Assembly: GCF_035581365.1 (NCBI RefSeq) | Contig: NZ_CP141590.1 | Coordinates: 2,290,001-2,354,000 of the forward strand | Direction: 5' to 3' | Origin: Tsuneonella sp. CC-YZS046 | GTDB taxonomy: Bacteria; Pseudomonadota; Alphaproteobacteria; Sphingomonadales; Sphingomonadaceae | DNA: 64,000 bases | In this document: piece by piece, positions 4,362 through 21,552 of the stretch | Numbering within the stretch: the first letter of the stretch is position 1 | How the letters are laid out: the number at the start of each line of letters is the position of its first letter | Translations under genes and position numbers: made by a program | Notes under the pieces: generated by a model | The model's database searches: none | Seen by the model: the letters and a program-made list of their open reading frames with translations, nothing else | What the model was told of the DNA's origin: nothing

Positions 4362-5168
4362 ATGAAGCTCGAAACCGTTTTCGTCGAGAAACCCTGGGGG
4401 CGGACGGACCTGCCCGGTCATTTTTCGACCGGCGGGCGCAAGATCGGCGAGGTCTGGTTTCCCCCGCCCCCCGATGGCGAGGATCTGCTGGTCAAGCATA
4501 TCTTCACCAGCGAGAAGCTGTCGGTCCAGGTTCACCCGAACGACGCTCAGGCAAACGAGCGGGGCCTGCCGCGCGGCAAGGAGGAATGCTGGTTCGTGAC
4601 CGGAGCGGAACCGGGCGCCTGCCTGGGCATCGGCCTGAAGCAAAGCCTGACAGCCCGGGAAGTGCGGCAGGCCGCATCCAGTGGCGAAATCGAGCAACTG
4701 ATGGACTGGAAGCCGGTGCAGGCAGGGGATTTCTTCTATATTCCGGCGGGCACGATCCATGCGATCGGCGCGGGAATCACCCTGGTCGAAGTCCAGCAGA
4801 ACAGCGATGTCACCTATCGCCTCTACGATTACGGGCGCCCGCGCGAGCTGCATCTCGACGATGCCGTAGCGGTCGCCCGGGCGGCGCCCTATCCGCCTTC
4901 CCTGCATCGGCACGTCACGGGAAGGCAGACCGAACAGCTGGTCGACAGCCGGTATTTCCGGCTCGCTTTCTGCCATGGGGAAATCCCGGCGCTCGAAGGT
5001 TTCGGCCCCACCTTCCTGATCCCGATCGGCGGCGCCCTGCATCTGGGCGACATGACGGCCGCCTCGGGAGAGTGCGTCGCCACCGACGATCCGCTATGCT
5101 GGCAGGCCGAACCCGGCGCATCCTTGCTGGTGGCCCGTTCCGCCCAGCCCATCGGCATGCCTCACTGA
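4362..5168 (+). CDS. manA: Class I mannose-6-phosphate isomerase
   Basis: A 268-residue cupin enzyme converting fructose-6-phosphate and mannose-6-phosphate, the entry to GDP-mannose. Visible signatures are VQVHPNDAQA (zinc-binding), GKEECWFV, and IPAGTIHAIG. It is close to the short bacterial ManA length rather than the 390-residue E. coli form. The ATG at 4362 follows AAGGGGCG; upstream in-frame codons lie in the promoter region. It opens the exopolysaccharide locus, 14 bases before the export lipoprotein gene. With the phosphomannomutase (6973) and manC (33554) it completes the GDP-mannose pathway within this window. Confidence 0.92.
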   Translation: MKLETVFVEKPWGRTDLPGHFSTGGRKIGEVWFPPPPDGEDLLVKHIFTSEKLSVQVHPNDAQANERGLPRGKEECWFVTGAEPGACLGIGLKQSLTAREVRQAASSGEIEQLMDWKPVQAGDFFYIPAGTIHAIGAGITLVEVQQNSDVTYRLYDYGRPRELHLDDAVAVARAAPYPPSLHRHVTGRQTEQLVDSRYFRLAFCHGEIPALEGFGPTFLIPIGGALHLGDMTAASGECVATDDPLCWQAEPGASLLVARSAQPIGMPH

Positions 5169-5182
5169 GCAGGAGCTTCATA

Positions 5183-5737
5183 ATGAAAAAGACATTCGTA
5201 GCTGCCGCTTTTGCCATCCTTCTCGCGGGTTGCGCTTCCAGCGCCAATCTGCCCACCCTGAGCCTTGCGCCGGAACAGGCGGTCTATCGCCTGGGGATCG
5301 GCGATCAGCTGAAGGTAACGGTTTACGGGGAGGAACGGCTTACCGGGGAGTTTCCGGTGAACGGCCAGGGCAACGTCGCTTTCCCGTTGCTCGGAGAAGT
5401 TTCCGCCGCCGGAAGGACGCTGCAGGAATTCGAGAAGGAAATCAGCGCGGGGCTGGCCGACGGTTTCGTCAACAATCCCAGTGTAACCGTCGAAGTGGCC
5501 AATTACCGGCCCTATTACATTCTCGGCGAGATCACCAAACCGGGCGAATATCAGTTTGCCGACGGTCTTACAGTGTTCAGCGCAGTCGCGAGGGCCGGGG
5601 GCTTTACCTATCGCGCGGATAAGAAGAGGATATACATCCGCCACAAGTCGGGCGGAGACGAAGTGGCCTACCGCCTGGAGGGAAGCACGCCCGTGCAGCC
5701 GGGCGATACCATTCGTGTGTCCGAACGGCTTTTCTAG
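5183..5737 (+). CDS. Short OPX-type polysaccharide export lipoprotein
   Basis: A 184-residue outer-membrane polysaccharide export (OPX) protein with an N-terminal signal and lipobox LLAGC (Cys 17). It has one poly-export domain (about 36-115) and one SLBB-like region containing the motif YYILGEITKPGEY. It is much shorter than Wza (about 380 residues) and lacks the C-terminal helix that crosses the outer membrane, so it resembles GumB-type OPX proteins. Passage through the outer membrane may then need a partner barrel, and the beta-barrel protein at 16754 is the obvious candidate. It sits 14 bases after manA, probably in the same transcript. Confidence 0.9.
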   Translation: MKKTFVAAAFAILLAGCASSANLPTLSLAPEQAVYRLGIGDQLKVTVYGEERLTGEFPVNGQGNVAFPLLGEVSAAGRTLQEFEKEISAGLADGFVNNPSVTVEVANYRPYYILGEITKPGEYQFADGLTVFSAVARAGGFTYRADKKRIYIRHKSGGDEVAYRLEGSTPVQPGDTIRVSERLF

Positions 5738-5822
5738 ATAACCATATAGGCTGCACTCCCGGGTCTGCTCTCAATCGCCTTCTCTCTCATGATGCATTGC
5801 CTTGCTGCGCAACGCGGCAATG

Positions 5823-5839
5823 CTGCACTGCGTTATAAA
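5823..5839 (+). promoter_or_regulatory. TGC palindrome box abutting a TATAAA element
   Basis: CTGCACTGCGT is followed directly by TATAAA. The same layout, a box ending where a TATA element begins, appears at 29378-29394 and 32087-32103. It is a probable promoter with an operator overlapping the spacer. No clear -35 was found. Confidence 0.4.
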
Positions 5840-5884
5840 TATTGGGCGACTGCCCCTGCGACTGCCTTCGGAATGTCTTATTTT

Positions 5885-5950
5885 TTGCACATGCGAAGGA
5901 TAATAGGGCTGCAATACTGTCCCTTTTTGCACCAATGATGCGACGCACAA
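5885..5950 (+). promoter_or_regulatory. Two further TGC boxes before the priming transferase
   Basis: TTGCACATGCGAA (5885-5897) is followed by GGATAA, and ATGCGACGCACAA (5938-5950) is nearly identical to the box at 14308-14320 before the lasso operon. They lie 137-202 bp upstream of the start codon at 6087. The repeated GGATAA after such boxes here, near 16679 and near 24111 suggests a common promoter form. Confidence 0.45.
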
Positions 5951-6086
5951 TTTTTTGATTGACCTGAGTTGGAGGTAGGATAATCTTCACCATGTAAGGA
6001 TTCGAAGGGGGTAGTCGAGTGGTGCCCGGGGGCAGCGCCGTTAATTTTGACGGCAGTGGCATTTTTATCCGGTTTGGAGAATTTTT

Positions 6087-6899
6087 ATGCCAGTTCTCGA
6101 ATCGTATTCCAGCGGCAGCCGGGAGCCGCTCAAGGCTATTCTAGCCCAGCAGGACAGCTGGTCCGAACCAGTCTCTCCCAGGATTTCAATGCAGCCTCAC
6201 ACCATGGCCGCGAAGATCGCGCCGGAAGTCCTCATCGCCACGCCCAGGAAGTTGCCCAGCCAGATGGCGGCGCAGGAAGCCAGTATCTCGTCCGCATGGG
6301 CCGTGCGAGGCTTCGACATCCTGGTTTCCCTGGTCGCGATCATTCTTTTCCTTCCCTTGATGATGACCGTCTTCCTGCTGGTCAAGGCGACCAGCTCCGG
6401 GCCGGGGCTGTTCTGCCAGCAGCGCGTCGGGCGCGATGGCCAGTTGTTCCCCTGCCTCAAGTTCCGCACCATGGTGCCGGACGCGCAGCAGCAGCTCGAA
6501 CGGCTGCTGGCGGAATCGGAAGAAGCCCGGCTCGAATGGGAAAGGGACCAGAAGCTCAGATACGATCCCCGGATAACGGCGATCGGCGGCTTCCTTCGCA
6601 GGACGAGCCTGGATGAGCTGCCCCAGCTGTTCAACGTGCTGATCGGCCATATGAGCATCGTCGGGCCACGCCCGATCGTCCAGGGCGAAATCGTTCGCTA
6701 CGGCCCGCGCTTTGCAGCCTATTGCACCGTGCGCCCGGGGCTTACCGGCCTGTGGCAGGTGAGCGGGCGGAACGACGTGTCCTATGCCCGGCGGGTCAGG
6801 CTGGATTCCTTCTATGCCCGGCGGCAATCGCTCGCATTGAACGTATCCATCTGTTTCCAGACGGTTCCGGCCATTCTCAGTTCGCGCGGCTGCTACTGA
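6087..6899 (+). CDS. ExoY-like undecaprenyl-phosphate sugar phosphotransferase
   Basis: A 270-residue priming transferase (bacterial sugar transferase family) that loads the first sugar-1-phosphate onto undecaprenyl phosphate at the inner membrane. It has a single hydrophobic segment around residues 72-98, then the motifs QQRVGRDG, KFRTM, RRTSLDELPQLFNVL and MSIVGPRP, and ends with the conserved RPGLTGLWQVSGR region. The short, one-helix form matches ExoY rather than the five-helix WbaP type. GGAGA lies seven bases before the ATG. It starts the glycan assembled by the downstream glycosyltransferases; whether the sugar is glucose or galactose cannot be read from the sequence. Confidence 0.9.
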   Translation: MPVLESYSSGSREPLKAILAQQDSWSEPVSPRISMQPHTMAAKIAPEVLIATPRKLPSQMAAQEASISSAWAVRGFDILVSLVAIILFLPLMMTVFLLVKATSSGPGLFCQQRVGRDGQLFPCLKFRTMVPDAQQQLERLLAESEEARLEWERDQKLRYDPRITAIGGFLRRTSLDELPQLFNVLIGHMSIVGPRPIVQGEIVRYGPRFAAYCTVRPGLTGLWQVSGRNDVSYARRVRLDSFYARRQSLALNVSICFQTVPAILSSRGCY

Positions 6900-6972
6900 A
6901 CGTAGCACTCCGCGCCGGGCGAAGGTCACTTCCCCCCAGCCTTCGCCCGTCGCGCTTTTGCAGAGGAATCCC

Positions 6973-8352
6973 TTGACCCACAATTTCAATCTTTCCGCCC
7001 TCCGCGAATACGACATCCGCGGCATTGTGGGTCAGACCATCGACGAAACCGATGCCTGGGCGATCGGCCGGTCGTTCGGATCGATCCTGCGCAGGCGCGG
7101 CGGCACCCGGGTAGCGCTGGGCTACGATGGCAGGCTGACTTCGCCGCTGCTGGCGGCCGCCCTTACCAGGGGCCTGACGCAAACCGGCTGCAGCGTCATC
7201 GAAGTAGGGCTGGGGCCGACGCCGATGCTGTATTACGCCGAAGCCGAACTGCCGGTGGATGCCGGCATCCAGGTGACCGGCAGCCATAACCCGGCCGAAT
7301 ACAACGGTTTCAAGATGGTCATGAACCATGCCAGCTTCTTCGGCGAGGACATCCAGCTGCTGGGCCGCGTGGCCGCCGCCGGAGACTGGGAGAGCGGGGA
7401 AGGCGAAATCATCTCCCACGACATCGAGGACGCCTATCTCGACCGTCTCCTGCAGGGGCTTTCCTTCAAGCCGCACCGCATGGCCTGGGATGCCGGCAAT
7501 GGCGCGGCCGGCCGCATCATCGAACGGCTGGCCGAAGTGCTGCCCGGCGAGCATCACCTGCTCTACACGGAAATAGACGGCCGTTTCCCCAATCATCATC
7601 CAGACCCCACCGAAGAGCACAACCTTGCCGACCTCCAGAAGCTGGTCGCGGGCAAGGAGCTGGAATTCGGCTTCGCGTTCGATGGCGACGGGGACCGCAT
7701 CGGCGCGGTGGATTCGCTGGGCCGGGTCGTGTGGGGCGATCAGCTGCTGTCCATCCTGGCCGAGCCCGTACTGCAACGCCACCCCGGCGCCACCATCATC
7801 GGCGACGTCAAGGCCAGCCAGGCGCTATACGATCGGCTGGCCGAACTGGGCGCGCAACCGCTGATGTGGAAGACCGGACACAGCCTTATCAAGACCAAGA
7901 TGAAGGAAACCGGCAGTCCGCTGGCCGGGGAAATGAGCGGCCATATCTTCTTCGGCGACCGCTGGTACGGCTTTGATGACGCGATCTACGCAGCCTTGCG
8001 CTCGATCGAAGCGATCGACATGCTGGGCGGCTCGCTCACCGCCCTGAAATCGGCCATGCCGTCGATGGTCAACACCCCAGAAATGCGGTTCGACGTGGAT
8101 GCGGATCGCAAGTTCGCGGTGATCGACGAAGTTCTGCAACGCCTCGAAGAGAGCGGAGCCGATGTGGACCGTACTGACGGCGCGCGGGTCAGCACCCGGA
8201 ACGGATGGTGGCTGCTGCGCGCTTCCAACACCCAGGAAGTGCTGGTGGCCCGCGCCGAAGCGCCGGATCAGGAAACGCTCAAGCTCCTGCTGAAGGATAT
8301 AGATGAACAACTCGAAGCATCCGGCGTGAAACGCGCCGAAGCGGTTCATTGA
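6973..8352 (+). CDS. manB: Phosphomannomutase/phosphoglucomutase
   Basis: A 459-residue alpha-D-phosphohexomutase interconverting the 6- and 1-phosphates of mannose (and probably glucose). It shows the phosphoserine loop VTGSHNPAEYNG, the metal loop FDGDGDRIG, and the sugar-binding GEMSGH segment, all in the usual order. I place the start at TTG 6973 because AGAGGA lies five bases upstream. A second in-frame TTG at 6958 has no such site. It links ManA to ManC in GDP-mannose synthesis. Its 3' end faces a small minus-strand gene with a short gap. Confidence 0.92.
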   Translation: MTHNFNLSALREYDIRGIVGQTIDETDAWAIGRSFGSILRRRGGTRVALGYDGRLTSPLLAAALTRGLTQTGCSVIEVGLGPTPMLYYAEAELPVDAGIQVTGSHNPAEYNGFKMVMNHASFFGEDIQLLGRVAAAGDWESGEGEIISHDIEDAYLDRLLQGLSFKPHRMAWDAGNGAAGRIIERLAEVLPGEHHLLYTEIDGRFPNHHPDPTEEHNLADLQKLVAGKELEFGFAFDGDGDRIGAVDSLGRVVWGDQLLSILAEPVLQRHPGATIIGDVKASQALYDRLAELGAQPLMWKTGHSLIKTKMKETGSPLAGEMSGHIFFGDRWYGFDDAIYAALRSIEAIDMLGGSLTALKSAMPSMVNTPEMRFDVDADRKFAVIDEVLQRLEESGADVDRTDGARVSTRNGWWLLRASNTQEVLVARAEAPDQETLKLLLKDIDEQLEASGVKRAEAVH

Positions 8353-8686: not shown

Positions 8687-10480
8687 TCAAGTAGCGCTAT
8701 AGGCGAAATCGCCCTCGGCGTCGATGACTTCTCTGATATGGCCGGATTCGCTGGCGATCATCGCGTCCAGAGAGCCTGCGGCGGTCACTTCGCCATTCTC
8801 CAGCACGATAACATGATCGGCGAAGCTGACCATGGACGGCCGGTGCGCCACCGCGACCACCGTCATGCTGTCGCGCAAGCCGGCAATCGCCTGGGCGACC
8901 CGCCGCTGGCTCAACGCATCGAGCGCGCTGGTGGCTTCATCGAGAATGAGCAGATCCGGTTTGCGCAGCAAGGCGCGGGCAATGGCAATGCGCTGGCGCT
9001 CGCCCCCCGAAAGGCCCCGTCCCCGGTCGCCGATGCGATGTTCCAGCCCACCGGGAAGCATCCTCACGAAAGTCGCAGCATCGGCAATCTGCAGCGCGGC
9101 CCAAAGTTCGGAGTCGGTTGCTTCCTGCCGGGCCAACCGCAGGTTCTCGGCGATGGTCGCGTTGAACAGGAAGGTTTCCTGCGGAACATAGGCCACCCGC
9201 CCGCGCCACCCCTGGCAATTGCCGACCTCCAGCACGTCATCGTCCACCGCGATTTCGCCTTCATCCGGCTCGATCAGGCCGAGAATGAGATCGACCAGGG
9301 TCGACTTGCCGCTGCCGGTCGGGCCGACCAGCGCGGTTATGGAGTGGGCCGGGATGGTCACATCGATATGGCTGAGCGCGTTCTTGTTCGCATCCTGATA
9401 GCGGTAGCTGACATCCCGAAGGCGCAGGCAGCGGCGCAAACGCGGCGTCGGCAGACATTGTTGCGGGTTCTGCTCGGCATTGCTTTCCGCCGCATGCAAG
9501 GCCCCGAACATGGCTTCCACGCCGCCGATCTGGGTCAGCAATTCCTGCAGCGAGGTATGCAAGGTGACGATCCGGGGGGCGAGGCGCATATACAGGAACA
9601 GAAGCGCCACGATCTTGGCCAGCCCAAGCCCGGCATAACTCAGCGCGAACCAGACGAAGCCAGCCAGCGCGATGGCGGTCGACACCTGATAGATCGTCGT
9701 GCTGCGCGCCCGCACGACCACGAACCCGACGTTGCCGTTGCGTATCTCGCGCAGGATATCTTTCATCGCTCCGACATGCCGGTCCTCCAGCCCGAAGGCC
9801 TTGGCAGTGCGCAGGCCGTTGAAGAATTCGTCGGTGATCCGGAACTGCGTCTGGCGCGCCTCGACCAGCCGGCGGCCTTTCTGGAGGGTCTGACCGCGGC
9901 CGGGCAGCGTTATCAGCAGAAGTACCAGCCCGACCCCCATGGCCAGCAAAGTCATCTGCCATGACAGGAACAATGACAGGCAGGTCAGAATCGCGGCCAT
10001 CGCCAGCGATTGCATGAAGGAAAGCAGAAGATTGATGGTCTGCAGCAGCCGGTCGCTGTCTCCCGTCACCACATGCGTCATGTCGGCGGTTCGCCAATTG
10101 CTTACGGCGGACCAGCGCGTGGCCGCCAGCGCGGCGAACAGCCGTGCGCTCATCCGTTCGGCAAAGCCGAAGGTCACTCTTGCATTGAAGGCTTCCTTGC
10201 GCTCCAGCGCCAGGGAGCGCAGCACGATCAGCACGACAAACGCCCCCAGCACCAGCGGCAGCGACGGCGTGAACCGGATTCCGACCAGGGGTATGGTCAG
10301 GGGCACGGCGCCCTTGCCCATCACATGCAGCAGCGGAATCAGCAGCGCAACAGACAAGGCTTCGGTCAGCGATCCGATCGTCTGCAGGAGCACTGCCTTG
10401 TCGAAATCCCGTCCGGTTTCCCGCCTTACCAGCGCGATCAGACGCGCGATGCGCAGCGGCTCAGGTGAAAGCGCGGGCAT
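8687..10480 (-). CDS. Lasso peptide ABC exporter (D protein)
   Basis: A 597-residue half-transporter with an N-terminal six-helix ABC transmembrane domain and a C-terminal nucleotide-binding domain. The latter shows Walker A GPTGSGKST, signature LSGGERQR, Walker B LLILDEATSALD and the H-loop AHR. There is no N-terminal C39 peptidase domain, as expected for lasso exporters, because the leader is cut by B1/B2. Its ATG overlaps the end of the kinase gene by 20 bases, so it is translated from the same transcript. It would export the mature lasso peptide and provide self-protection. Export of a glycan precursor is the less likely alternative. Confidence 0.88.
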   Translation of the reverse strand: MPALSPEPLRIARLIALVRRETGRDFDKAVLLQTIGSLTEALSVALLIPLLHVMGKGAVPLTIPLVGIRFTPSLPLVLGAFVVLIVLRSLALERKEAFNARVTFGFAERMSARLFAALAATRWSAVSNWRTADMTHVVTGDSDRLLQTINLLLSFMQSLAMAAILTCLSLFLSWQMTLLAMGVGLVLLLITLPGRGQTLQKGRRLVEARQTQFRITDEFFNGLRTAKAFGLEDRHVGAMKDILREIRNGNVGFVVVRARSTTIYQVSTAIALAGFVWFALSYAGLGLAKIVALLFLYMRLAPRIVTLHTSLQELLTQIGGVEAMFGALHAAESNAEQNPQQCLPTPRLRRCLRLRDVSYRYQDANKNALSHIDVTIPAHSITALVGPTGSGKSTLVDLILGLIEPDEGEIAVDDDVLEVGNCQGWRGRVAYVPQETFLFNATIAENLRLARQEATDSELWAALQIADAATFVRMLPGGLEHRIGDRGRGLSGGERQRIAIARALLRKPDLLILDEATSALDALSQRRVAQAIAGLRDSMTVVAVAHRPSMVSFADHVIVLENGEVTAAGSLDAMIASESGHIREVIDAEGDFAYSAT

Positions 10481-11393
10481 TTTCTGTCTCGCATGCGAGG
10501 AAGGGGCCCAATTGGGAAATTTCCTCCAGGCTGTGCTTCACGGTGAGAATATCCGCATCGATATGCAGCGCCAACGCCGCCGCGCGAGCGAACAGCCGCG
10601 CGGTCTGCGCCGGAACATTGGCAGCCGGCCCCAGCCTCGGATAATGGGAAAAGCGGATCAGCGCATGGAGCTTCTCGGGCTGGCTCAATGGCCTAATTGC
10701 ATTGCGGGTTCCCCGCGCAAGGCAGTGTATCCTGCCCAGCGGAACCGCCGCTCGCGGCATCCGCGCCTTCAGGCGAACGCGAGACTTGCCTGCCGTATAG
10801 CAACCGTCATCGGGCTGCAGCACAGTGTATGATCCTTTCGGGAAGGATGAAAACATGTGCTTGTCCAGCTTCATCGCGGGATAGCCGGGGCGCACGACAA
10901 GCTGCCCCGAAGAAAGCCGCTCTATCGCCACGACATCGTCGGAAATCAGCGGAAATCCGGATGCGATCAGCGCCGCCGCCGTGGTGGATTTGCCCGAACC
11001 CTTGTCCCCCAGGAAAACATGGGCCGTGCCGCCGATCATCACGGCGCTGCCGTGCAGCACCAGCAATCCCTGGCGGTGCAGCAGAACGGAGAAAACCGGG
11101 CCCAGCAGCGGCATGCCGATCAGGCGACGGTCGAATTGCGGTTCGACATCGACTTCAATCGCAGTGGGATTGCGCACCAGGAAGCGTCCCACATCCTGAA
11201 ACTCGATCAAATCGCCGTCCGGAGTGATCCGGTAGTTCCGGAAATCGTCGAAGCGAAAGACGGAGCCGGGAATATCAGCCCGCCTTATCGTCAGCTCCGG
11301 CCTGGACGGCACAACGGCCTCGGCTTCGAGCACCTCGAAATCCGAGCCGATCGTCAGCCCATAGGCACGGAAATGAAAGCCGGCCCCACTCAT
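10461..11393 (-). CDS. HPr-kinase-like lasso peptide kinase (K protein)
   Basis: A 310-residue protein with the HPr kinase/phosphorylase fold. His 114 in LHGSAVMI precedes the P-loop GDKGSGKST (about 129-137), followed by SDDVVAIE as the Walker B region. The start at 11393 overlaps the cyclase stop (ATGA). Characterised homologues of the PadeK type phosphorylate the C-terminal Ser of lasso precursors, and here the precursor indeed ends in Phe-Ser. True HPrK regulators also carry an N-terminal DRTGG domain and sit near ptsH; neither is seen here. I therefore call it a tailoring kinase of the lasso cluster. Confidence 0.88.
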   Translation of the reverse strand: MSGAGFHFRAYGLTIGSDFEVLEAEAVVPSRPELTIRRADIPGSVFRFDDFRNYRITPDGDLIEFQDVGRFLVRNPTAIEVDVEPQFDRRLIGMPLLGPVFSVLLHRQGLLVLHGSAVMIGGTAHVFLGDKGSGKSTTAAALIASGFPLISDDVVAIERLSSGQLVVRPGYPAMKLDKHMFSSFPKGSYTVLQPDDGCYTAGKSRVRLKARMPRAAVPLGRIHCLARGTRNAIRPLSQPEKLHALIRFSHYPRLGPAANVPAQTARLFARAAALALHIDADILTVKHSLEEISQLGPFLACETENARAFT

Positions 11394-13258
11394 TCCGCCG
11401 CCTCGGGCAGATGTTGATGGAATGCATAGGGCATCAGGCCGCGCTGGTGTTCGAGCCAACGCCCCAACACCACCGCCCGCCAGATCTGCTGGAACTTCGC
11501 ACCTTCGAGAGTTCCTTCCTGCCGCAGTGTCCGCCAGCTTGCCCGCAGGCCATCCATGTCGGCGAAACGCGCCAATTCCCCGGCATCGGCCTGAAGACTC
11601 CGCTCGACCAGTTCACCATGCCGGGCCAGCATCGAACTGCGGATGCGGTCGGTAAAATCGAACTTGTCTAACCGCGTGGCGACGGCGGGCGGCAGCAGGC
11701 CAGCCATCGCCTTGCGCAGGATCAACCGGGAAACTCCGTTCGCCCATTTCTCGCTGGCCGGAACCGTAACGCAAAAGCTCACTAGATCGACATCCATGAA
11801 TGGCATGCGGATCTCGACCCCCGCCGCAGCGGCATTGTGATCGAGCGCTTCCAGCGCATGCGCGAACAACGGAGCGGACAGCTTGCTGAGGTGCGCGGCC
11901 TGCTCGGTGGGACGCGGGCGACCATCGGGCGCATAACGGACGGGGTCATCCACCCGGCGCTTCCGCTTGAGCAGCCAGCCCGCCCGGCGGCGCCAGCCCC
12001 GCAGCCCCCATCGGCGGACCAGCCGCCAGAACCGCTTGCCGCGCTCGGGCCGCAAATCCTCCGAAGCGCCCAATTCCCGCCAAAGCCGCAGCCAGCGGCC
12101 GCTTTCCGCAAGCTCCTGAAAGATGCTATTGCCGTATGACACGACTTCGTCACCGCCATTGCCATCCAGCAGGATGCGAACATCGCTCTGCTGCGAAATG
12201 GTGCGTATGAAATATCGCAACGTGGCCATGTTCGGACCCAGGATCGGCTGGTCCTGCTCCGCAACGATCGCGTCGCAATCGTCAAAGGCGGAAATGCCCG
12301 ACCCATCCACACGATGGGCATGAAAACCGAACCTGTCTTCCACTGCCGCGATGTATTCGGATTCGTCCACTCCCCCGTCGAACACCAATGAGAACACCGG
12401 GACATCGCCCAGCTTCCGATCGGCCTGGCCCGATCCGATCACCGAGACGATGGACGAGGAATCCAGACCGCCGCTCAACAGCGCGCCCAACGGCCGCGTC
12501 GTGCGCAGCCGCCGGTCGACGGCCTGCCTGAACAGGGTCCTGAAATCGGCCGCCGCGTCACGCCGGCGAACCGGCAAACCGGGATTCAGCGACCAGTAGC
12601 GTGTGACCTTGAAGCCATTTCGATCGGCCCAGCCATGATGGCCCGGCAGCAATCGATACACCCCTTCGAAGGCAGTGAGTTCCGGCCGGTGTCCGCCACG
12701 GTCGCCATCCACGAAACCGGCAATGGTCTGTTCCCTAACGTCGAACGGCGCCTGGGCCATGGCCTGCAGCCCCTTGATCTCCGAAGCGAAATGGAATGCC
12801 CCCGCCGCCTGACGCCAGAACAGGGGCTTCACGCCAAAGTGATCCCTGCAGAGGAACAGCCCGGCCCTGGACGGGTCCCATATCGCGAAGGCGAAATCGC
12901 CGCGCAGCAGAGCCGGCAGACCATCGCCGAAATGCCGGTAGGCGGCCAGCAGCAGCACCTTGTCGTGGCAATGCCGCCATTCGAAATCCGGAGATGCCCC
13001 GCTATCGCGCAGCGCGGCCAGCAATGCATCCCGATTGTCGAGGCGGCCATCGAAGCTCAGCACGTAACCGTCCCGGTCGATATGCATGCCATTGCAGCCG
13101 GTGTCGAACAGGCCGTGGCCCAGCACAACGGTATCGCCCGGATATAGCGAGAATCCGTCCGGGCCGCGATGCGCCATGGCATCAAGCCCGGCCTGCACCT
13201 GGCAGGAAAGCGTCGACCGATCGGAAGCCGGGGTCAGGATGCCGCAGACCCCGCTCAT
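11390..13258 (-). CDS. Lasso cyclase, asparagine synthetase-like (C protein)
   Basis: A 622-residue protein homologous to glutamine-dependent asparagine synthetase. The N-terminal Ntn-type domain starts MSGVCGIL, so the catalytic Cys expected at position 2 is absent and glutaminase activity is unlikely, as in other lasso cyclases. The synthetase domain has the PP-loop LSGGLDSSS, used to adenylate the ring-closing Asp or Glu side chain before macrolactam formation. It starts immediately after the B2 stop (TGAATG) and overlaps the kinase gene by four bases. Its position between B2 and the kinase, and the nearby precursor, make a lasso role much more likely than asparagine synthesis. Confidence 0.92.
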   Translation of the reverse strand: MSGVCGILTPASDRSTLSCQVQAGLDAMAHRGPDGFSLYPGDTVVLGHGLFDTGCNGMHIDRDGYVLSFDGRLDNRDALLAALRDSGASPDFEWRHCHDKVLLLAAYRHFGDGLPALLRGDFAFAIWDPSRAGLFLCRDHFGVKPLFWRQAAGAFHFASEIKGLQAMAQAPFDVREQTIAGFVDGDRGGHRPELTAFEGVYRLLPGHHGWADRNGFKVTRYWSLNPGLPVRRRDAAADFRTLFRQAVDRRLRTTRPLGALLSGGLDSSSIVSVIGSGQADRKLGDVPVFSLVFDGGVDESEYIAAVEDRFGFHAHRVDGSGISAFDDCDAIVAEQDQPILGPNMATLRYFIRTISQQSDVRILLDGNGGDEVVSYGNSIFQELAESGRWLRLWRELGASEDLRPERGKRFWRLVRRWGLRGWRRRAGWLLKRKRRVDDPVRYAPDGRPRPTEQAAHLSKLSAPLFAHALEALDHNAAAAGVEIRMPFMDVDLVSFCVTVPASEKWANGVSRLILRKAMAGLLPPAVATRLDKFDFTDRIRSSMLARHGELVERSLQADAGELARFADMDGLRASWRTLRQEGTLEGAKFQQIWRAVVLGRWLEHQRGLMPYAFHQHLPEAAE

Positions 13259-13687
13259 TCACCGCGCTCCGATCAAGGGCGAAAACGCGGCAAGCTCGGT
13301 TTGCGTGCCGCCCAGCACGATCTCATCGCCGCTGATGAGCCAGGCATGGGCGTCGAAGGGTTTGTCCGCGGTCTTGCGCACGCCGACATGGATTTCAGAG
13401 CCATGGCCCTTCAATGCCAGCATCCGTTGCCCGGCCATGGCGCGGACAAGGCAAGTCGGCCGCAAGACGAAACGCGCGGCCTGATCGACCGACCAGGCAA
13501 TCCGGCGCGCAAGGGCGGTCGGAGCCTGTGCTTCCCGAGCCGTTGCGGCACAGCCTTCTCTCGGATCGCCGAAACCCTTCAGGCTCAGAAGAATGCGGGC
13601 TTGCCAAAGATAGCAGAACGCTAGCCCCAGCAGCCACTTTTCGCGCCAGAGCAACGACAGCAACGCCGGGCGGTGCAGTTCAGGCAT
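13259..13687 (-). CDS. Lasso peptide leader peptidase (B2, transglutaminase-like)
   Basis: A 142-residue transglutaminase-fold cysteine protease of the lasso B2 family. The catalytic Cys 79 lies in RPTCLVRAMA and the His 114 in FDAHAW, matching the C...HAW pattern of microcin J25 McjB C-terminal domains. It would remove the leader after the Thr-Leu pair of the precursor. The gene overlaps B1 by eight bases and ends directly before the cyclase start. In this cluster B is split into B1 (recognition) and B2 (protease), as in many alphaproteobacterial and Bacillus clusters. Confidence 0.92.
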   Translation of the reverse strand: MPELHRPALLSLLWREKWLLGLAFCYLWQARILLSLKGFGDPREGCAATAREAQAPTALARRIAWSVDQAARFVLRPTCLVRAMAGQRMLALKGHGSEIHVGVRKTADKPFDAHAWLISGDEIVLGGTQTELAAFSPLIGAR

Positions 13688-13964
13688 GTTCGCGCTCTTC
13701 GATCAGGCCAGCGCCCGCCATCGCGCCGATCCAATCGGCGACATCGGCTTCGGCCACATCCGGGCTTACCTCGAATGCGCCGGTAAGCGCCGAACAGAGC
13801 GCGGAAAAATCCGCGCCCTTGAGTAATTCGCCCCACAGGAAATAGCCGGTGCCTGCCAGCGAGTAATATACGTTCTTCGTGGTGTCGAGCAGCGCCGCCC
13901 CATCATCGAGATCGCTGTAAATGACGCTGGCAGCCGGCCGCCAGGCTTTCTCCGCTGTTTCCAT
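13680..13964 (-). CDS. PqqD-family RiPP recognition element (lasso B1)
   Basis: A 94-residue PqqD-like winged-helix protein. Such RiPP recognition elements bind the precursor leader and deliver it to the B2 protease and the cyclase. Visible are the DDGAALLD beta-hairpin and a Tyr-Phe-Leu-Trp helix typical of the family. I choose ATG 13964, six bases after GGAG, over the adjacent GTG at 13967. It follows the precursor gene after a gap that contains a strong hairpin and overlaps B2 by eight bases. Confidence 0.92.
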   Translation of the reverse strand: METAEKAWRPAASVIYSDLDDGAALLDTTKNVYYSLAGTGYFLWGELLKGADFSALCSALTGAFEVSPDVAEADVADWIGAMAGAGLIEEREHA

Positions 13965-14003
13965 CACCTGCTCCAGACCCGTGACATGAAAACGCCGAAA
14001 GAT

Positions 14004-14040
14004 ATTCGGGGGGCCAGGACCGGGGCCCCACCCCCCGAAT
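14004..14040 (-). terminator. Hairpin between lasso precursor and B1
   Basis: Perfect ten-base arms ATTCGGGGGG (14004-14013) and CCCCCCGAAT (14031-14040) enclose a 17-base GC-rich loop that can pair further. No T-run follows on the minus strand. A stem-loop here would reduce read-through or protect the precursor message, giving more A than B1-D. This is a common arrangement in lasso operons. Confidence 0.6.
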
Positions 14041-14061
14041 CAAGTTCCACCCAAAAGGCGG

Positions 14062-14078
14062 CCTGATCTGGGATCAGG
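14062..14078 (-). terminator. Small hairpin spanning the precursor stop codon
   Basis: Seven-base arms CCTGATC and GATCAGG with a three-base loop contain the TGA stop of the lasso precursor. It could protect the 3' end of the precursor transcript together with the larger hairpin 22 bases further on. Confidence 0.4.
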
Positions 14079-14223
14079 AAAAAGTGAGATCACCCCGCGG
14101 AGTGTTTGCCGGAAAAGGGAAATCGGTGAAGTCCCCATCCGTACCACCGAGAGTGATTTCTTCAAACGAACCAATCTGGCTCACTTCTGGTTTTTGGTAG
14201 GCTTGTTTTTTGGAAGTCTGCAT
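14074..14223 (-). CDS. Lasso peptide precursor (A), predicted RGD-containing core
   Basis: A 49-residue precursor read directly from the minus strand; AGGAAGG lies eight bases before the ATG. The leader holds Tyr9, Pro12, Val14, Gly18 and Thr24 in the exact spacing of the lasso leader pattern YxxPxLxxxGxxxxxTxG, with Thr at position -2. The predicted 24-residue core begins at Gly26. The ring would be GGTDGDFTD, closed between Gly1 and Asp9, the only acidic residue at positions 7-9. The tail, core residues 10-24, contains ArgGlyAsp at 18-20 and ends in Phe-Ser. The terminal Ser fits phosphorylation by the kinase at 10461. The gene heads the A-B1-B2-C-K-D operon. Confidence 0.93.
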   Translation of the reverse strand: MQTSKKQAYQKPEVSQIGSFEEITLGGTDGDFTDFPFPANTPRGDLTFS

Positions 14224-14307
14224 AACACTTACCTTCCTGAATTTGGGTTAGGCACGACGCTTCACCCAGCACAAAGGCTCTCATGGTGCGCCGCATGAGT
14301 CAATATG

Positions 14308-14320
14308 TTGCGACGCACAA
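14308..14320 (-). promoter_or_regulatory. TTGCGACGCACAA box before the lasso operon
   Basis: This 13-mer lies about 85 bp upstream of the precursor ATG. It matches the boxes at 4222-4234 (one difference) and 5938-5950 (one difference) in the exopolysaccharide control regions. A related half, GGTGCGCCGCATGA, lies 15 bases nearer the gene. It is a candidate operator linking the lasso operon to the surrounding locus. Confidence 0.5.
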
Positions 14321-14489
14321 ACGAGATGGCTTGAACTTGGCTATTTACCTTTTGTTTCCCATTAAGGGACAGGAAATACGGCAGTTCGTTTTAAATGTGC
14401 GATAGTGTGCATATGCAATATCTCCGATTCGAATCGAGAATCCGAGTCGGAACGATGCAATCCGCAGGGAAAGGGCGGGCAGCCGGATT

Positions 14490-15659
14490 CTAGCGCCGAT
14501 GGCGCACAAGCCACGCCAAGGGACGATTGAACCATATAGGCACTTTTCCGCCCGTGGCATCCTGGTCGCGCGACATATCCGTCAGGTCGAACGCCAATTC
14601 CGCGGCCAGATAGGCCGGCTTGCACCACAGGAGATAATGGCTTGCGTTCTTTATCGACGTGCCGAAGCGCGTGGCTTCCAGCTCGGTCGCGCCTTCGCCA
14701 TTCAGCGCCCGCCGCGCTGCCGCCACGAGCAGACGGACACTCAGCGGAGCGGCCTTGCGCCCCACCGGATGCTCCGTCTCGAACAATTCGCTACACAGGA
14801 GGAATGCTTGCCGCAACGCACGCTCGGCGGGTTGTTTTCTTTGCCGGCTCAGGAGAGCGCTGGTGCCCTCCGGCCCGAGTTTGCGGGCGATTATGGCCAT
14901 GTCCAGCAGCCATTTCAGTCGGGACCAGGCGTGGAGGGCGCCATGCAGCGCGAGGTATGCCGGCTCATCCTCCTCGCCCAATGTCATCACTTCCACCTGC
15001 CCGAACAGCCTGACGGCACGCGCGCGGCGCATGATGCCGGGATCGCACAAGGTGCGATTGTCGAACAGGCGATGGTGCAGTTCCACGACCGTTCCGTTGG
15101 ACGGCAGGATGTAGACCCAATCCTTGCTGCGCTTCACCCATCGGGCCAGTTCATCGGATGGCGGATCGCCCTCAGGCTCCACCCTGCGATAGCCGAGCGC
15201 GGTCAAGGCGCCATGGCCGCGATCCAGATCGCCGGGCGAGACAACAAGGTCGATGTCGTGGTTGACGCGCAGGCCCATGCGCCCATGCCCTTCCGAAGAC
15301 AGCACCATGCCCTTGATGACCAGAAAAGGAACGGTTTCCCCGTCCAGTGCGGCCTTGATCCGGCACAATTCGCCGAACATCGCCATTTCATGAAACAGGG
15401 CAGCCTTGGCTTCCCGGCGGAACTCGGCCGCGACCGGCGCGGGCACACCGGCGGCCGGCCCCAGCGCCTCCAGCCGGTGCGCGGCAAGGGGCACCACGCG
15501 GTGCCTGCGGGCATGGGCCAGGACCTCCGCCCAGTCCACATCGCCCAGCGCCTCGATGCGCCGGAGCCTGACAGGGTCCGCATCTGCGATCCATGGATCG
15601 GTCAGCGCGAGAAGCGCCCGGAAAGCCTCGCTGCCCCGAGGCGGGCGGCGATCAGCCAC
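14490..15659 (-). CDS. Nucleotidyltransferase family protein (NTP_transf_5 type)
   Basis: A 389-residue protein of the uncharacterised nucleotidyltransferase family PF14907. The family signature is seen as LVIKGMVL followed by RVNHDIDLVV, the DxD-type metal site. Such genes recur in or beside lasso clusters that carry HPr-like kinases, as I recall from the family literature, so a role in modifying the peptide or its phosphate is possible but unproven. It lies 266 bases upstream of the precursor on the same strand, and its start overlaps the stop of the upstream phosphatase-family gene by eight bases. It may therefore belong to that transcript instead. Confidence 0.82.
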   Translation of the reverse strand: MADRRPPRGSEAFRALLALTDPWIADADPVRLRRIEALGDVDWAEVLAHARRHRVVPLAAHRLEALGPAAGVPAPVAAEFRREAKAALFHEMAMFGELCRIKAALDGETVPFLVIKGMVLSSEGHGRMGLRVNHDIDLVVSPGDLDRGHGALTALGYRRVEPEGDPPSDELARWVKRSKDWVYILPSNGTVVELHHRLFDNRTLCDPGIMRRARAVRLFGQVEVMTLGEEDEPAYLALHGALHAWSRLKWLLDMAIIARKLGPEGTSALLSRQRKQPAERALRQAFLLCSELFETEHPVGRKAAPLSVRLLVAAARRALNGEGATELEATRFGTSIKNASHYLLWCKPAYLAAELAFDLTDMSRDQDATGGKVPIWFNRPLAWLVRHRR

Positions 15660-16617
15660 CGCAATCTCCTACATCTATGTCCGTGACGATCGGGAAATGG
15701 TCGGAACCCAGCGCCGGGCCGCGGCGCACCGATACAGGGTCCAGGCACGGGCCGAGATAGACCTGATCGAGCGGCAGGCGCAGCACGCCGGCCGGCGCAT
15801 TCGTCGGCCATGTGCCGATCGCGCCCGATGCGAGCCGCAACTCTCCACCCGCGCTCAGCCGGCGCATGGCGAAGGTCCAGGGCGCGGAGTTGAAATCGCC
15901 CGCGAGAATCCCCCGGCGCCCGACCGTGGCGGCCGCATTGGAAAGCTCGCCCCAATATTGCTCCTGCTGGCCCAGCGGCCAGGGGCGATCGAAGTGGACG
16001 CCGGTTATCGGAATGGTTCGCCCCGCGATCTCGAAATGCGCGGCGACAGCGGAAAGGGTCTGCCGGTTTTCCGGATCGCCGCTGGCCAGAGGCCACACAT
16101 CCTTCGCGGGCTGGCGGGCAAGGATCACGGTCGAGCAGTAACCGGACCCGGCACAATTGTAGGAATAGGGATAGTGCTGCCTGAGCCGGGCCACTGCCGG
16201 AAGGTTGCTCCGGAACGCTTCGAGCAGGATCACGAAATCGGCATCCTGCCCGATGATCCAGTCCATCGCCGCCTCCGGATCGGGATTGGCCTTGTACATG
16301 TTGAAGCTCACGACGCGGATGCGCGTAGCGTCGGAAGCGCTGGCCGAACCGGGTATCAGCGGCCCGAGCAGCGCCACGGCCATGGCTGCATAGCCCAGCA
16401 GGAGCGCAAGCGCCGCCGATCTCGCGGCACGGCGGCTGAACCAGGCAATGACGCATAATATCGCCAGGCCCAGCGCCAGCCAATACGGCGCGACGATATT
16501 CGTGCTGTCGGCCCGGTATGAAACCGCGCCCAGAAGAGAAATGCCCAGCATCAGCCCGCAACCGGCAAGCAAGAGCATCCTCAGCAGCGAAGAAGCGACG
16601 CCGCTCCCCTTCGACAT
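15652..16617 (-). CDS. Endonuclease/exonuclease/phosphatase family membrane protein
   Basis: A 321-residue protein with three N-terminal membrane helices (about residues 10-95) and a C-terminal EEP domain. The EEP motifs are visible as VVSFNMYKAN, ILLEAF, ILAGDFNS and GSDHFPIVTDI, giving the metal and catalytic Asn, Glu, Asp and His. The topology places the EEP domain outside the cytoplasm, in the periplasm, as in other EEP proteins with N-terminal helices. I use ATG 16617, seven bases after GGGGA, rather than upstream in-frame starts. It is co-transcribed with the nucleotidyltransferase. The substrate (nucleic acid, phospholipid or other phosphodiester) is unknown. Confidence 0.8.
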   Translation of the reverse strand: MSKGSGVASSLLRMLLLAGCGLMLGISLLGAVSYRADSTNIVAPYWLALGLAILCVIAWFSRRAARSAALALLLGYAAMAVALLGPLIPGSASASDATRIRVVSFNMYKANPDPEAAMDWIIGQDADFVILLEAFRSNLPAVARLRQHYPYSYNCAGSGYCSTVILARQPAKDVWPLASGDPENRQTLSAVAAHFEIAGRTIPITGVHFDRPWPLGQQEQYWGELSNAAATVGRRGILAGDFNSAPWTFAMRRLSAGGELRLASGAIGTWPTNAPAGVLRLPLDQVYLGPCLDPVSVRRGPALGSDHFPIVTDIDVGDCGG

Positions 16618-16678
16618 GGCGCTGTCCCCATTCAGATACCGTTTCATCCTGCCACACAAATAGGGCGTTGCAACTTTT

Positions 16679-16691
16679 TTGTGCATTGCAA
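16679..16691. promoter_or_regulatory. TTGTGCATTGCAA box in divergent promoter
   Basis: This 13-mer differs from TTGTGCGGTGCAA at 4202-4214 in two bases. It sits between the minus-strand phosphatase-family gene and the plus-strand beta-barrel gene, with another TTGCAAC at 16668-16674 and a GGATAA element about 15 bases downstream. It probably serves the divergent promoters. Confidence 0.5.
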
Positions 16692-16753
16692 CAATAGCGC
16701 GATAGGATAAGCTTCCAACCGTAAATCAAGTAACATGAGCTGGATCCGACTTG

Positions 16754-18085
16754 ATGGTCAGGACTCTGCCGAATCAAGGTGTTGTAGAAAAAAAGTGGCG
16801 CATCGCCAACAATGCGACTCGCTTCGCCGTGGTCGCTTGCGGGCCGTCGATCCTGTTCTGGGGCGGCGCTCTCCTCCCTCTCGATGTTGCAATTGCACAA
16901 GACATGCACGGCTCCGAGCCAGCGGACACGGCAGGCAACCGGGCGCAGCCGGCCTATGACGCGGTGGGCATCCGGCTGGGAAGCATTCGCGTCCTGCCGA
17001 CCCTGGGCCTGACCGGCAGCTGGGACAGCAATGTCCTGGCCAGTTCGGACGATGCGGTGTCGGATTTTTCCGCGACCCTGGTTCCCGCGGTGCGCGCGGA
17101 ATGGAACAACCCCCGTCGCCAGATCTCCCTGAATGGGGAGATGCGCATCCGCCGCTATGCCGAACTCCACCGCCAGAACGACGAGCAATACCGCGCCCAG
17201 GCAGCCGCCCGCTTCGAGATTTCCGACAATACCGCCATCTCGGCCAATCTCGGCTGGGCGAACGTCACCGCCACGCGCGGCACATTCGAGAACGGCTTCC
17301 AGGTCGGCGACCCGCTGCGGATGCGAGAAGTCAATGCGGATCTGAGCGTCCTGCAGCGGTTCAACCGGCTTACCGTGGTCGCCAGCGCCAGCGCATCCCG
17401 CTTCCGCTATGGCGACGTCCGCCTCGACGATGGAACGTCGATCGATCAATCCTTCCGGAACGGGCACCAGATCGGCGGTTCCCTGCGGGCCAGATACGTG
17501 GTCGGCCCGCGCCTTTCCCTGGTATCCCGCGTCACCGCCAACAAGTTCGATTACAGCGATCCCGATCCGCTCACCAATCGTAACGCCACCGCCTATGCGG
17601 TGACGGGCGGCATAAGCTATGAGCTGACCCAGCTGCTCGAAGCGGAAGTCGACGCCGGCATCCAGAAGCACAATTTCCGCAATCCGGCCTTCGGCGATAT
17701 TTCCGGCCTTGCCCTCAATGCCCGCCTGCGGTGGTATCCGACACCGCTTCTGACCGTCCGCTTCGATGTATCGCAGCGGACCACGACCAGTTCCTTCAAT
17801 GCGACCAGCGCGGTCGCGGTGACTTCGGGGCGGCTTGCGGCCGATTACGAGCTGCGCCGCAACCTCCTGATCTCGGCCGACGTGAACTATTCCCATGAGA
17901 AATACGGGGCCGGCGACAATGTCTCGGGCCTGCTCACCCTGTCAGGCCAGGCGGCCTGGAAGGCGAATCGGTGGCTGCGTGTGACAGGCCGCGCCAGTTA
18001 CGACCGGCGGGGGAGCAACTCGGATGTTACGATCCCCGAATTCGACGCGCTGCGCTTCATGCTGACGCTGACGGTGGCGCGATGA
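16754..18085 (+). CDS. Outer-membrane beta-barrel protein of the exopolysaccharide locus
   Basis: A 443-residue protein with an N-terminal signal region (cleavage probably near AIAQDMHG, about residue 48) followed by alternating amphipathic strands to the C-terminus. This resembles the BBP2_2-type outer-membrane barrel found in polysaccharide loci. There is no plug domain or TonB box. It directly precedes the Wzc-like gene. Because the OPX lipoprotein at 5183 lacks an outer-membrane helix, this barrel may form the actual glycan channel, as in systems where short OPX proteins pair with a separate barrel. That is inference. Confidence 0.8.
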   Translation: MVRTLPNQGVVEKKWRIANNATRFAVVACGPSILFWGGALLPLDVAIAQDMHGSEPADTAGNRAQPAYDAVGIRLGSIRVLPTLGLTGSWDSNVLASSDDAVSDFSATLVPAVRAEWNNPRRQISLNGEMRIRRYAELHRQNDEQYRAQAAARFEISDNTAISANLGWANVTATRGTFENGFQVGDPLRMREVNADLSVLQRFNRLTVVASASASRFRYGDVRLDDGTSIDQSFRNGHQIGGSLRARYVVGPRLSLVSRVTANKFDYSDPDPLTNRNATAYAVTGGISYELTQLLEAEVDAGIQKHNFRNPAFGDISGLALNARLRWYPTPLLTVRFDVSQRTTTSSFNATSAVAVTSGRLAADYELRRNLLISADVNYSHEKYGAGDNVSGLLTLSGQAAWKANRWLRVTGRASYDRRGSNSDVTIPEFDALRFMLTLTVAR

Positions 18086-18127
18086 AAGCAAGGATGATCC
18101 GAAAGCGGATTGAAAGGTAGAAGACAG

Positions 18128-20386: not shown

Positions 20387-21552
20387 ACGCGCCCTGCCAA
20401 ATCGGCATGAAGGTCGCGGTCGTTCACTACTGGCTGGTGGGAATGCGCGGCGGCGAGCGCGTGCTCGAGCGTATCCTCCGCCTGTTCCCGGGGGCCGACA
20501 TCTTCACCCATGTCTACGACCCGGACGCCGTTTCCGCATTCATACGCTCGCACCGCGTGCGGACGAGCTTCATCCAGAAGCTGCCGGGGGCGGTCAGGCA
20601 CTACCAGAAATATCTGCCGCTCATGCCGATGGCTCTCGAGGAACTGGATCTGCGCGGCTACGATCTGGTGATCTCGAGCGAATCCGGACCCGCCAAGGGC
20701 ATCCTGGCGCCGCCTGACGCCTTCCATCTCTGCTACTGCCATTCGCCCATGCGCTATTTGTGGGACCACTATCAGCCCTACAAGGAGATGTCCGGCCGAT
20801 TGACGAGGATGGCGATGCCGTTCCTGTTCCGCAATCTGCGCCAGTGGGATACGACTTCCGCCCAGCGTCCCGACAAGATCCTCGCAAACAGCAGCTTCAT
20901 CGCGCGCCGGGTGCGCAAATCCTGGGGCCGCGATGCGGATGTGGTGCATCCGCCGGTCGACGTGGACCTTTTCTCCCTGTCGGATGCGCCGGGCGATCAT
21001 TATCTGTGGGTGGGCCAGATGACCCCCTACAAGCGCGCCGATCTGGTGGCGGACGCCTTCACTCGCCTGGGCCTTCCGCTGGTCATGGTCGGAACCGGCG
21101 AACTCTCGGCAGATATCGCGAAACGCGCCGGGCCGAATATCCGCATCGTCGACCGGCTGGATTTCGCGGATTTGCGGCGCGCCTATTCCGAATGCAAGGC
21201 GCTGATCTTTCCGCCGGAGGAAGACTTCGGCATCGTGCCGGTCGAAGCCAATGCCGCCGGGCGGCCCGTGATAGCCTATGGAAAGGGAGGCGCGATCGAC
21301 TCCATCCGTCCGGGCGAAACCGGGCTGTTCTTCCGGCAGCAGACCGTCGAGGCGCTGATCGATGCGGTCGAGCAATTCGAGAAATGGCTGCCTGAATTCG
21401 ATCCGCAGGCGGCCCGCGCCAATGCCCGGCGCTTCGCCCCGGACGTGTTCGACGGCAAGTTCATGGCCGCCGCGATGACTGGCCTGAACCGGGATGACGC
21501 TCCGGATATCCGCCCCCTGACAGACGCCGTGGAGCTGGCGGGCAAGCCATGA
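20383..21552 (+). CDS. Glycosyltransferase family 4
   Basis: A 389-residue GT-B retaining glycosyltransferase acting on the lipid-linked repeat unit at the cytoplasmic face. The C-terminal half has the GT4 nucleotide-sugar site PPEEDFGIVPVEANAAGRP, with the E-x7-E pair. The N-terminal half has the acceptor-side WLVGMRGGERV loop. The gene overlaps the Wzc gene and the following Wzy-like gene by four bases each (ATGA), so the three are translationally coupled. The sequence resembles mannosyltransferases of capsule loci, which would fit the GDP-mannose genes nearby, but the donor cannot be fixed by eye. Confidence 0.9.
   Translation: MNAPCQIGMKVAVVHYWLVGMRGGERVLERILRLFPGADIFTHVYDPDAVSAFIRSHRVRTSFIQKLPGAVRHYQKYLPLMPMALEELDLRGYDLVISSESGPAKGILAPPDAFHLCYCHSPMRYLWDHYQPYKEMSGRLTRMAMPFLFRNLRQWDTTSAQRPDKILANSSFIARRVRKSWGRDADVVHPPVDVDLFSLSDAPGDHYLWVGQMTPYKRADLVADAFTRLGLPLVMVGTGELSADIAKRAGPNIRIVDRLDFADLRRAYSECKALIFPPEEDFGIVPVEANAAGRPVIAYGKGGAIDSIRPGETGLFFRQQTVEALIDAVEQFEKWLPEFDPQAARANARRFAPDVFDGKFMAAAMTGLNRDDAPDIRPLTDAVELAGKP

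What the first reader, a model, noticed from the sequence alone, without database searches (positions are those of the whole stretch)
8687..14223. Complete lasso-peptide cluster hidden inside an exopolysaccharide locus
Six minus-strand genes in the order precursor, PqqD-like B1, transglutaminase-like B2, AsnB-like cyclase, HPr-kinase-like K and ABC exporter D run as one operon with overlaps or a one-base joint from B1 onward. The surrounding genes on both sides belong to glycan synthesis. The precursor is only 49 codons long and is easily missed in automated annotation. Seen directly: the gene order, the motifs and the leader pattern. Established: the roles of the A, B1, B2, C, D and K families. 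Inferred: that the product is made.
Basis: partly seen in the sequence, partly recalled or inferred. Interest (0 to 1): 0.9.

Follow-up and report, generated by a model that had tools for sequence, protein, structure and literature searches.

The report
Phosphorylated lasso-peptide operon in exopolysaccharide locus
This stretch of a sphingomonad genome holds a complete set of genes for making a knotted ('lasso') peptide, predicted to carry a phosphate and probably a sugar at its tail; it belongs to a known kind, but its repeated placement inside sugar-coat gene clusters of distant alphaproteobacteria points to a surface or biofilm role that can now be tested.

Summary
Genes A-B1-B2-C-K-D lie where stated and in the stated order, with intact motifs. 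The precursor scores above the NCBIfam lasso-leader cut-off and its orthologues are under purifying selection. A membrane-anchored phosphodiesterase-like gene (X, 16686-15652) overlaps N and is shared with Sphingopyxis.

The core peptide (GGTDGDFTDFPFPANTPRGDLTFS; predicted Gly1-Asp9 ring, C-terminal Ser) belongs to a family 'D9-x-x-FP-x-x-TP-x-x-[DE]-LTFS' found in Sphingomonadaceae, about 40 Mesorhizobium, an acidobacterium and cyanobacteria, always with a kinase gene.

Placement in polysaccharide loci is repeated: 5 of 6 Sphingomonadaceae genera and 41/41 Mesorhizobium-type loci, against 0 of 44 kinase-less lasso loci. Related genomes have the same polysaccharide operon without the insert.

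Best reading: a (poly)phosphorylated, probably phospho-glycosylated lasso peptide of the SyanK/PsmK-N kind. Such clusters are known, and in Bacilli were already reported inside capsule loci (PMC13381572). So: new member of a known kind, usefully extended to alphaproteobacteria.

The parts
14074..14223 (-). A: lasso precursor, 49 aa; leader 1-25 (Y9 = -17, P12 = -14, T24 = -2), core 26-49 GGTDGDFTDFPFPANTPRGDLTFS, predicted Gly1-Asp9 isopeptide ring, C-terminal Ser
   Evidence: (NF033521, 24.6 bits, cut-off 19)
13680..13964 (-). B1: PqqD-like leader-binding RRE (GTG start at 13967 also possible)
   Evidence: PF05402 51 bits
13259..13687 (-). B2: leader peptidase, transglutaminase-like, conserved Cys79 and His114
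   Evidence: (NF033537 80.5 bits, cut-off 33)
11390..13258 (-). C: AsnB-like macrolactam synthetase, SGGLDSSS ATP motif
   Evidence: NF033535 447.6 bits, cut-off 525
10461..11393 (-). K: HPr-kinase-like precursor kinase; H114, K135 (P-loop GDKGSGKST), D152/D153 conserved
8687..10480 (-). D: ABC exporter
14490..15659 (-).
   Evidence: (170.6 bits, cut-off 31.2)
15652..16686 (-). X: N-terminal hydrophobic (membrane) region plus Exo_endo_phos domain with complete active-site signature (N129, E156, D264-x-N266, D329-H330); overlaps N by 8 bp; conserved next to N in Sphingopyxis L067 (44% identity); membership of the pathway inferred
   Evidence: (70.3 bits)
13968..14073 (-). A-B1 intergenic region with a 10-bp G+C-rich hairpin (no T run); a hairpin at the same position, of unrelated sequence, in nine other loci examined; possible partial terminator or mRNA-stability element
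   Evidence: (z -1.55 only)
4586..8352 (+). flanking polysaccharide genes: Wza-type Poly_export (4586-5737), sugar transferase Bac_transf (6087-6899), phosphomannomutase (6958-8352)
16751..23015 (+). flanking polysaccharide genes: BBP2_2 beta-barrel (16751-18085), Wzc-type chain-length protein/tyrosine kinase (18110-20386), glycosyltransferase (20383-21552), and 21549-23015 (no Pfam family, conserved in the same operon elsewhere)

Best explanation
The operon makes a class II lasso peptide. Shown by sequence: the gene set, motifs, conserved leader, ring acid and tail. Inferred from characterised homologues: (1) B1 binds the YxxP leader and presents the precursor. (2) K phosphorylates the hydroxyl of the C-terminal Ser, possibly several times, on the linear precursor. 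(3) B2 cuts after Leu25 (Thr at -2). (4) C joins Gly26 (core Gly1) to the Asp9 side chain with the tail threaded, using ATP. (5) N, a nucleotidyltransferase-fold enzyme, decorates the phosphate, most likely with a hexose or a nucleotide- or polyol-phosphate-derived group. (6) D exports the product. Because this subfamily keeps being found within Wza/Wzc polysaccharide loci, the product most likely acts at, or is incorporated in, the cell-surface polysaccharide or biofilm; that last step is inference. Confidence by step: lasso cluster 0.97; phosphorylated C-terminal Ser 0.85; modification of the phosphate by N 0.65; functional tie to the polysaccharide 0.5. The single value below is for the peptide-chemistry claim as a whole (lasso, phosphorylated, N-modified in some way).
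For: Complete intact gene set with lasso-specific profile hits. Eleven aligned precursors from three phyla share Y(-17), P(-14), T(-2), D9, T16-P17 as invariant residues, and F12, P13, T22 and S24 in at least 90%. The C-terminal residue is Ser in all K-bearing alphaproteobacterial precursors of the family. K keeps the His-Lys-Asp-Asp residues that PMC9266682 reports as essential in the lasso kinases; that review reports C-terminal Ser (poly)phosphorylation by SyanK of Sphingobium yanoikuyae and hexose addition to phospho-Ser dependent on the nucleotidyltransferase PsmN. N is present in all alphaproteobacterial family members: 41/41 Mesorhizobium-type and 9/9 Sphingomonadaceae loci including the window and Sphingopyxis, and is the only NTP_transf_5 in this genome. 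Its model matches LnuA/ANT(2'')/MenT nucleotidyltransferases (Z about 12) and FKRP (Z about 10). Polysaccharide link. Purifying selection on the precursor.
Against: No expression or mass-spectrometric data. K falls just under the Pfam cut-off alone and C below the NCBIfam lasso-cyclase cut-off. The related kinase BsfK phosphorylates Ser3 of the ring, not the C terminus (PMC10368454), so the site is not fixed by family alone; position 3 here is Thr. What N transfers is unknown even for PsmN, where a host glycosyltransferase was not excluded. The Calothrix relative (L117) has a core that runs past LTFS, and the cyanobacterial and acidobacterial family members show no polysaccharide markers within reach. 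Rhizorhabdus loci have them only about 17-24 kb away.
Confidence: 0.75

Rival explanations
1. An ordinary secreted antibacterial or signalling lasso peptide that merely sits in a polysaccharide locus because such loci are variable islands that accept insertions; no functional tie to the polysaccharide.
For: The cluster is absent from the same polysaccharide operon in related genera (L270, L277, L279, L280, L281), so it was gained or lost as a block. Some other HprK/AsnB cassettes in the family also lie near such genes (5 of 28).
Against: Kinase-less lasso clusters of the same family do not land there (0 of 44 within 10 kb), while this subfamily does in 5 of 6 genera with different arrangements (Fisher p = 1.2e-6, not corrected for relatedness) and in 41/41 Mesorhizobium-type loci within 1 kb. 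Only about 4% of this genome lies that close to such markers (my estimate).
Confidence: 0.4
2. The kinase and N act on a linear phosphopeptide (an LPP-like product) and no lasso is formed.
For: LPP clusters of Bacilli use the same kind of RRE, kinase, NTP-transferase and transporter and lie in the same kind of locus (PMC13381572).
Against: LPP clusters lack the cyclase; here C and B2 are present with intact motifs and the ring acid D9 is invariant.
Confidence: 0.04
3. A decaying or silent cluster that makes nothing.
For: No expression data; a related pba cluster and lpp cluster gave no detectable native product (PMC13381572) and bsf is silent in the laboratory (PMC10368454).
Against: No stop or frameshift in any gene; strong purifying selection in the Mesorhizobium orthologues of the precursor (pN/pS 0.115); a good ribosome-binding site before A.
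Confidence: 0.1

Closest known systems
syan cluster (SyanA/SyanK) of Sphingobium yanoikuyae ATCC 51230 (described in PMC9266682 and PMC8498205)
   Same: Sphingomonad lasso cluster with an HPr-kinase homologue; C-terminal Ser (poly)phosphorylated
   Different: The primary paper is not held, so SyanA could not be compared; polysaccharide context of syan not known to me
pseudomycoidin (PsmA/K/N), Bacillus pseudomycoides DSM 12442 (PMC9266682)
   Same: Kinase plus nucleotidyltransferase; C-terminal Ser phosphorylated, then hexosylated in an N-dependent step
   Different: Firmicute; gene order differs (N between B2 and D in the firmicute clusters according to PMC8498205); core family not compared
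bsf cluster, Bradymonas sediminis (PMC10368454)
   Same: Gram-negative A, B1, B2, C, D, K, N set; YxxPxL leader with identical spacing (-17, -14, -12)
   Different: Ile at -2 and phosphorylation at Ser3 with C-terminal Asp; here Thr at -2 and C-terminal Ser; [quoted passage not shown]
paeninodin-type and LPP clusters in capsular polysaccharide loci of Bacilli (PMC13381572)
   Same: K + N + RRE + exporter cluster embedded in a polysaccharide locus; role unknown, biofilm speculated
   Different: Bacillota only; leader motif WxxP in paeninodins vs YxxP here; LPPs lack the cyclase

Membership tests
Lasso peptide biosynthetic cluster (split B1/B2) | Precursor with YxxPxL...T(-2) leader and Gly/Ala core start with Asp/Glu at 7-9 | tested here: met
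   Y9, P12, T24, Gly26, Asp at core 9; NF033521 above cut-off; the L position is Val
Lasso peptide biosynthetic cluster (split B1/B2) | B1 RRE, B2 cysteine peptidase, AsnB-like cyclase together | tested here: met
   the C protein is below the NCBIfam lasso-cyclase cut-off (447.6 vs 525) but that is its best model
Lasso peptide biosynthetic cluster (split B1/B2) | Threaded lariat product | not testable with these tools
   needs mass spectrometry/NMR
C-terminally phosphorylated lasso peptides (paeninodin/SyanK type) | HPr-kinase homologue with His-Lys-Asp-Asp catalytic residues in the operon | tested here: met
   (H114, K135, D152, D153)
C-terminally phosphorylated lasso peptides (paeninodin/SyanK type) | C-terminal Ser in the precursor, conserved among relatives | tested here: met
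   exception Calothrix L117, core extended past LTFS
C-terminally phosphorylated lasso peptides (paeninodin/SyanK type) | Phosphate actually on that Ser | not testable with these tools
   experiment needed
Phospho-glycosylated lasso peptides (pseudomycoidin type) | Nucleotidyltransferase-type N protein in the cluster | tested here: met
   PF14907, 170.6 bits, conserved in alphaproteobacterial relatives; PsmN itself was not available for direct comparison
Phospho-glycosylated lasso peptides (pseudomycoidin type) | Hexose on the phospho-Ser | not testable with these tools
   predicted masses 2755.13 / 2917.19 Da
Paeninodin clade proper (Bacillota) | W-x-x-P leader motif | tested here: not met
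   leader is YQKP; motif from PMC13381572
Linear polyphosphorylated peptides (LPP) | No macrolactam cyclase, SipW-like SpI leader peptidase | tested here: not met
   cyclase C and B2 present, and no signal-peptidase gene among the operon's genes

The most novel reading that the evidence does not exclude
The phosphorylated tail is the attachment point of a glycan: N (and perhaps X) links the lasso peptide through its C-terminal phosphate to sugar or to the polysaccharide assembled by the surrounding genes, so that a mechanically knotted peptide becomes a structural or protective part of the extracellular matrix in alphaproteobacteria.
Probability: 0.1. Interest if true: 0.85.

Novelty: new member of a known kind. 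Interest (0 to 1): 0.42.

Why it matters
The biological role of phosphorylated lasso peptides is unknown (stated in PMC13381572 for the Bacilli ones). The recurrence of this subfamily in polysaccharide loci of Sphingomonadaceae and Mesorhizobium, with a near-fixed core and with matched loci that lack it, turns the vague biofilm idea into a knock-out experiment in tractable Gram-negative, partly root-nodulating bacteria, and gives a conserved substrate series for working out what N does.

Tried and rejected
Rfam scan of the window: nothing. Plasmid records: no close homologue of C in PLSDB. A 385-genome alphaproteobacterial sample held no further kinase of this subfamily; the four distant hits were the other HprK/AsnB cassette. 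Sequence search of N against solved structures: nothing significant, so a model was used instead. The promoter scan was no better than shuffles, and terminators likewise; the A-B1 hairpin is only z = -1.55, though a hairpin recurs at that position. Considered and dropped: that the precursor ORF is a chance ORF (refuted by orthologues and selection), and that the cluster arrived recently from far away (G+C equals its surroundings, which does not exclude older transfer).

Full report
OBSERVATION. Profile scans identify PqqD (B1), Transglut_core3/lasso B2, Asn_synthase with the NCBIfam lasso cyclase as best model, Hpr_kinase_C (K) and an ABC exporter (D). The 49-residue precursor MQTSKKQAYQKPEVSQIGSFEEITL|GGTDGDFTDFPFPANTPRGDLTFS hits the lasso leader model NF033521 above its cut-off. 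Tyr(-17), Pro(-14) and Thr(-2) have the spacing given for lasso leaders in PMC10368454. Masses were recomputed: 2513.11 Da lasso, 2593.08 Da with one phosphate.

WHAT WAS MISSED. Directly upstream of A lies N (15659-14490, minus strand), PF14907 NTP_transf_5 at 170.6 bits. It is the only such gene in the genome. N overlaps by 8 bp an upstream gene X (16686-15652) with an N-terminal hydrophobic region and a complete Exo_endo_phos active site. X and N lie in the same order and overlap in Sphingopyxis sp. JAI128 (L067; N 39%, X 44% identity). Every alphaproteobacterial relative of the cluster has an N gene, either in the operon or divergent from it. An AlphaFold model of N (mean pLDDT 77.7) matches nucleotidyltransferases of the LnuA, ANT(2''), MenT kind (Z about 12) and FKRP (Z about 10), with conserved KG, R and D-x-D residues. 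FKRP, from my own knowledge, transfers a ribitol phosphate onto a glycan; a shared fold does not show a shared reaction.

RELATIVES. One scan of the genome collection with C returned Sphingopyxis sp. JAI128 (48% identity), about 40 Mesorhizobium and related loci, and cyanobacterial, acidobacterial and chloroflexal loci. Nearly all carry K. Precursors found by their leader motif share a distinctive core: Asp at position 9, FP at 12-13, TP at 16-17 and a [DE]LTFS end, from Sphingomonadaceae, Mesorhizobium, a Pyrinomonadaceae MAG (L109), Nostoc-type genomes (L113, L115, L127) and Calothrix (L117, core extended past LTFS). In 40 distinct Mesorhizobium precursor genes pN/pS is 0.115, with the leader at 0.02 and the core at 0.23, so the precursor is a real, constrained gene. 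K keeps His114, Lys135, Asp152, Asp153, matching the His-Lys-Asp-Asp set that PMC9266682 reports as essential. A hairpin of differing sequence lies just after A in the ten loci examined, window included; its function is untested.

CONTEXT. Left of the operon are Wza-type export, sugar transferase and phosphomannomutase genes; right of X are a BBP2_2 barrel, Wzc-type kinase, glycosyltransferases, a Wzx-type flippase and a pyruvyl transferase. In Sphingopyxis the cluster sits beside the same BBP2_2-Wzc-glycosyltransferase operon. In other Sphingomonadaceae genera it sits beside wza, wzc/BBP2_2 or sugar-transferase genes in other arrangements (L147, L148, L150), or, in Rhizorhabdus (identified by a 100% plasmid match to R. 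wittichii RW1), 17-24 kb from them. In all 41 Mesorhizobium-type loci a sugar transferase or wza gene follows D within 1 kb. As a control, 80 B2-centred loci of the same family were read: none of 44 kinase-less lasso loci has wza, wzc or a sugar transferase within 10 kb, against 5 of 6 genera of this subfamily (Fisher p = 1.2e-6, relatedness not corrected). This genome has only 4 Poly_export and 3 Bac_transf genes, so I estimate about 4% of it lies that close. The same polysaccharide operon in other genera runs from the sugar transferase straight into BBP2_2-Wzc-glycosyltransferase with no lasso genes and no X between them (L270, L277, L279, L280, L281): the cluster is a discrete insert at a conserved place.

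KNOWN OR NEW. Kinase-bearing lasso clusters, C-terminal Ser polyphosphorylation by a sphingomonad kinase (SyanK) and N-dependent hexosylation (PsmN) are established (reviewed in PMC9266682, PMC8498205). A Gram-negative cluster with K and N (bsf) is characterised (PMC10368454). Paeninodin-type clusters embedded in capsular polysaccharide loci of Bacilli were reported in 2026, with the role stated as unknown and biofilm speculated (PMC13381572). I found no paper in the held library that reports the alphaproteobacterial polysaccharide association or the LTFS core family; many papers are not held. Hence: new member of a known kind, with a documented extension of a recently noticed association to another phylum and a conserved core family.

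MECHANISM. [quoted passage not shown] The gene content and conserved residues are shown; each chemical step is inferred from homologues. The functional tie to the polysaccharide is the weakest link and the most worthwhile to test.

Noticed in passing
window 15652-16686 (-): Membrane-anchored Exo_endo_phos protein overlapping N; found beside the lasso cluster in Sphingopyxis L067 but not in 14 related polysaccharide loci without the cluster. Possible extra tailoring or phosphodiester-processing enzyme.
   Followed up: partly
L151-L154, L156, L157, L184, L190, L195, L200, L263-L266 and others: A second, more distant HprK/AsnB/PqqD/B2/NTP-transferase/ABC cassette is common in Sphingomonadaceae and other alphaproteobacteria (K 70-230 bits, C 200-330 bits); probably the Ile/Val(-2) phospho-lasso type of PMC10368454. 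In 5 of 28 loci it lies near polysaccharide genes; its precursors were not worked out.
   Followed up: partly
L117:12083-12313: The Calothrix precursor of the same core family continues past LTFS (core ends ...LTFSETPMRG), so the Ser equivalent to the kinase target would not be C-terminal.
   Followed up: no
L148:12940-13167: Precursor in G378 has an altered tail (...FGDLTCGVDGGMS) but still ends in Ser.
   Followed up: no
L117:2241-8266 and 9245-18780; L126, L142, L144, L146: Some cyanobacteria carry two lasso clusters in tandem, each with K, and several near-identical precursor copies in a row (for example three at L144:12148-13548).
   Followed up: no
window 13968-14076 (-): Hairpin between A and B1, with hairpins of unrelated sequence at the same place in the nine other loci examined.
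   Followed up: partly
window 33503-34585 (+): Mannose-1-phosphate guanylyltransferase (TIGR01479) further along the polysaccharide locus, suggesting a mannose-containing polymer.
   Followed up: no
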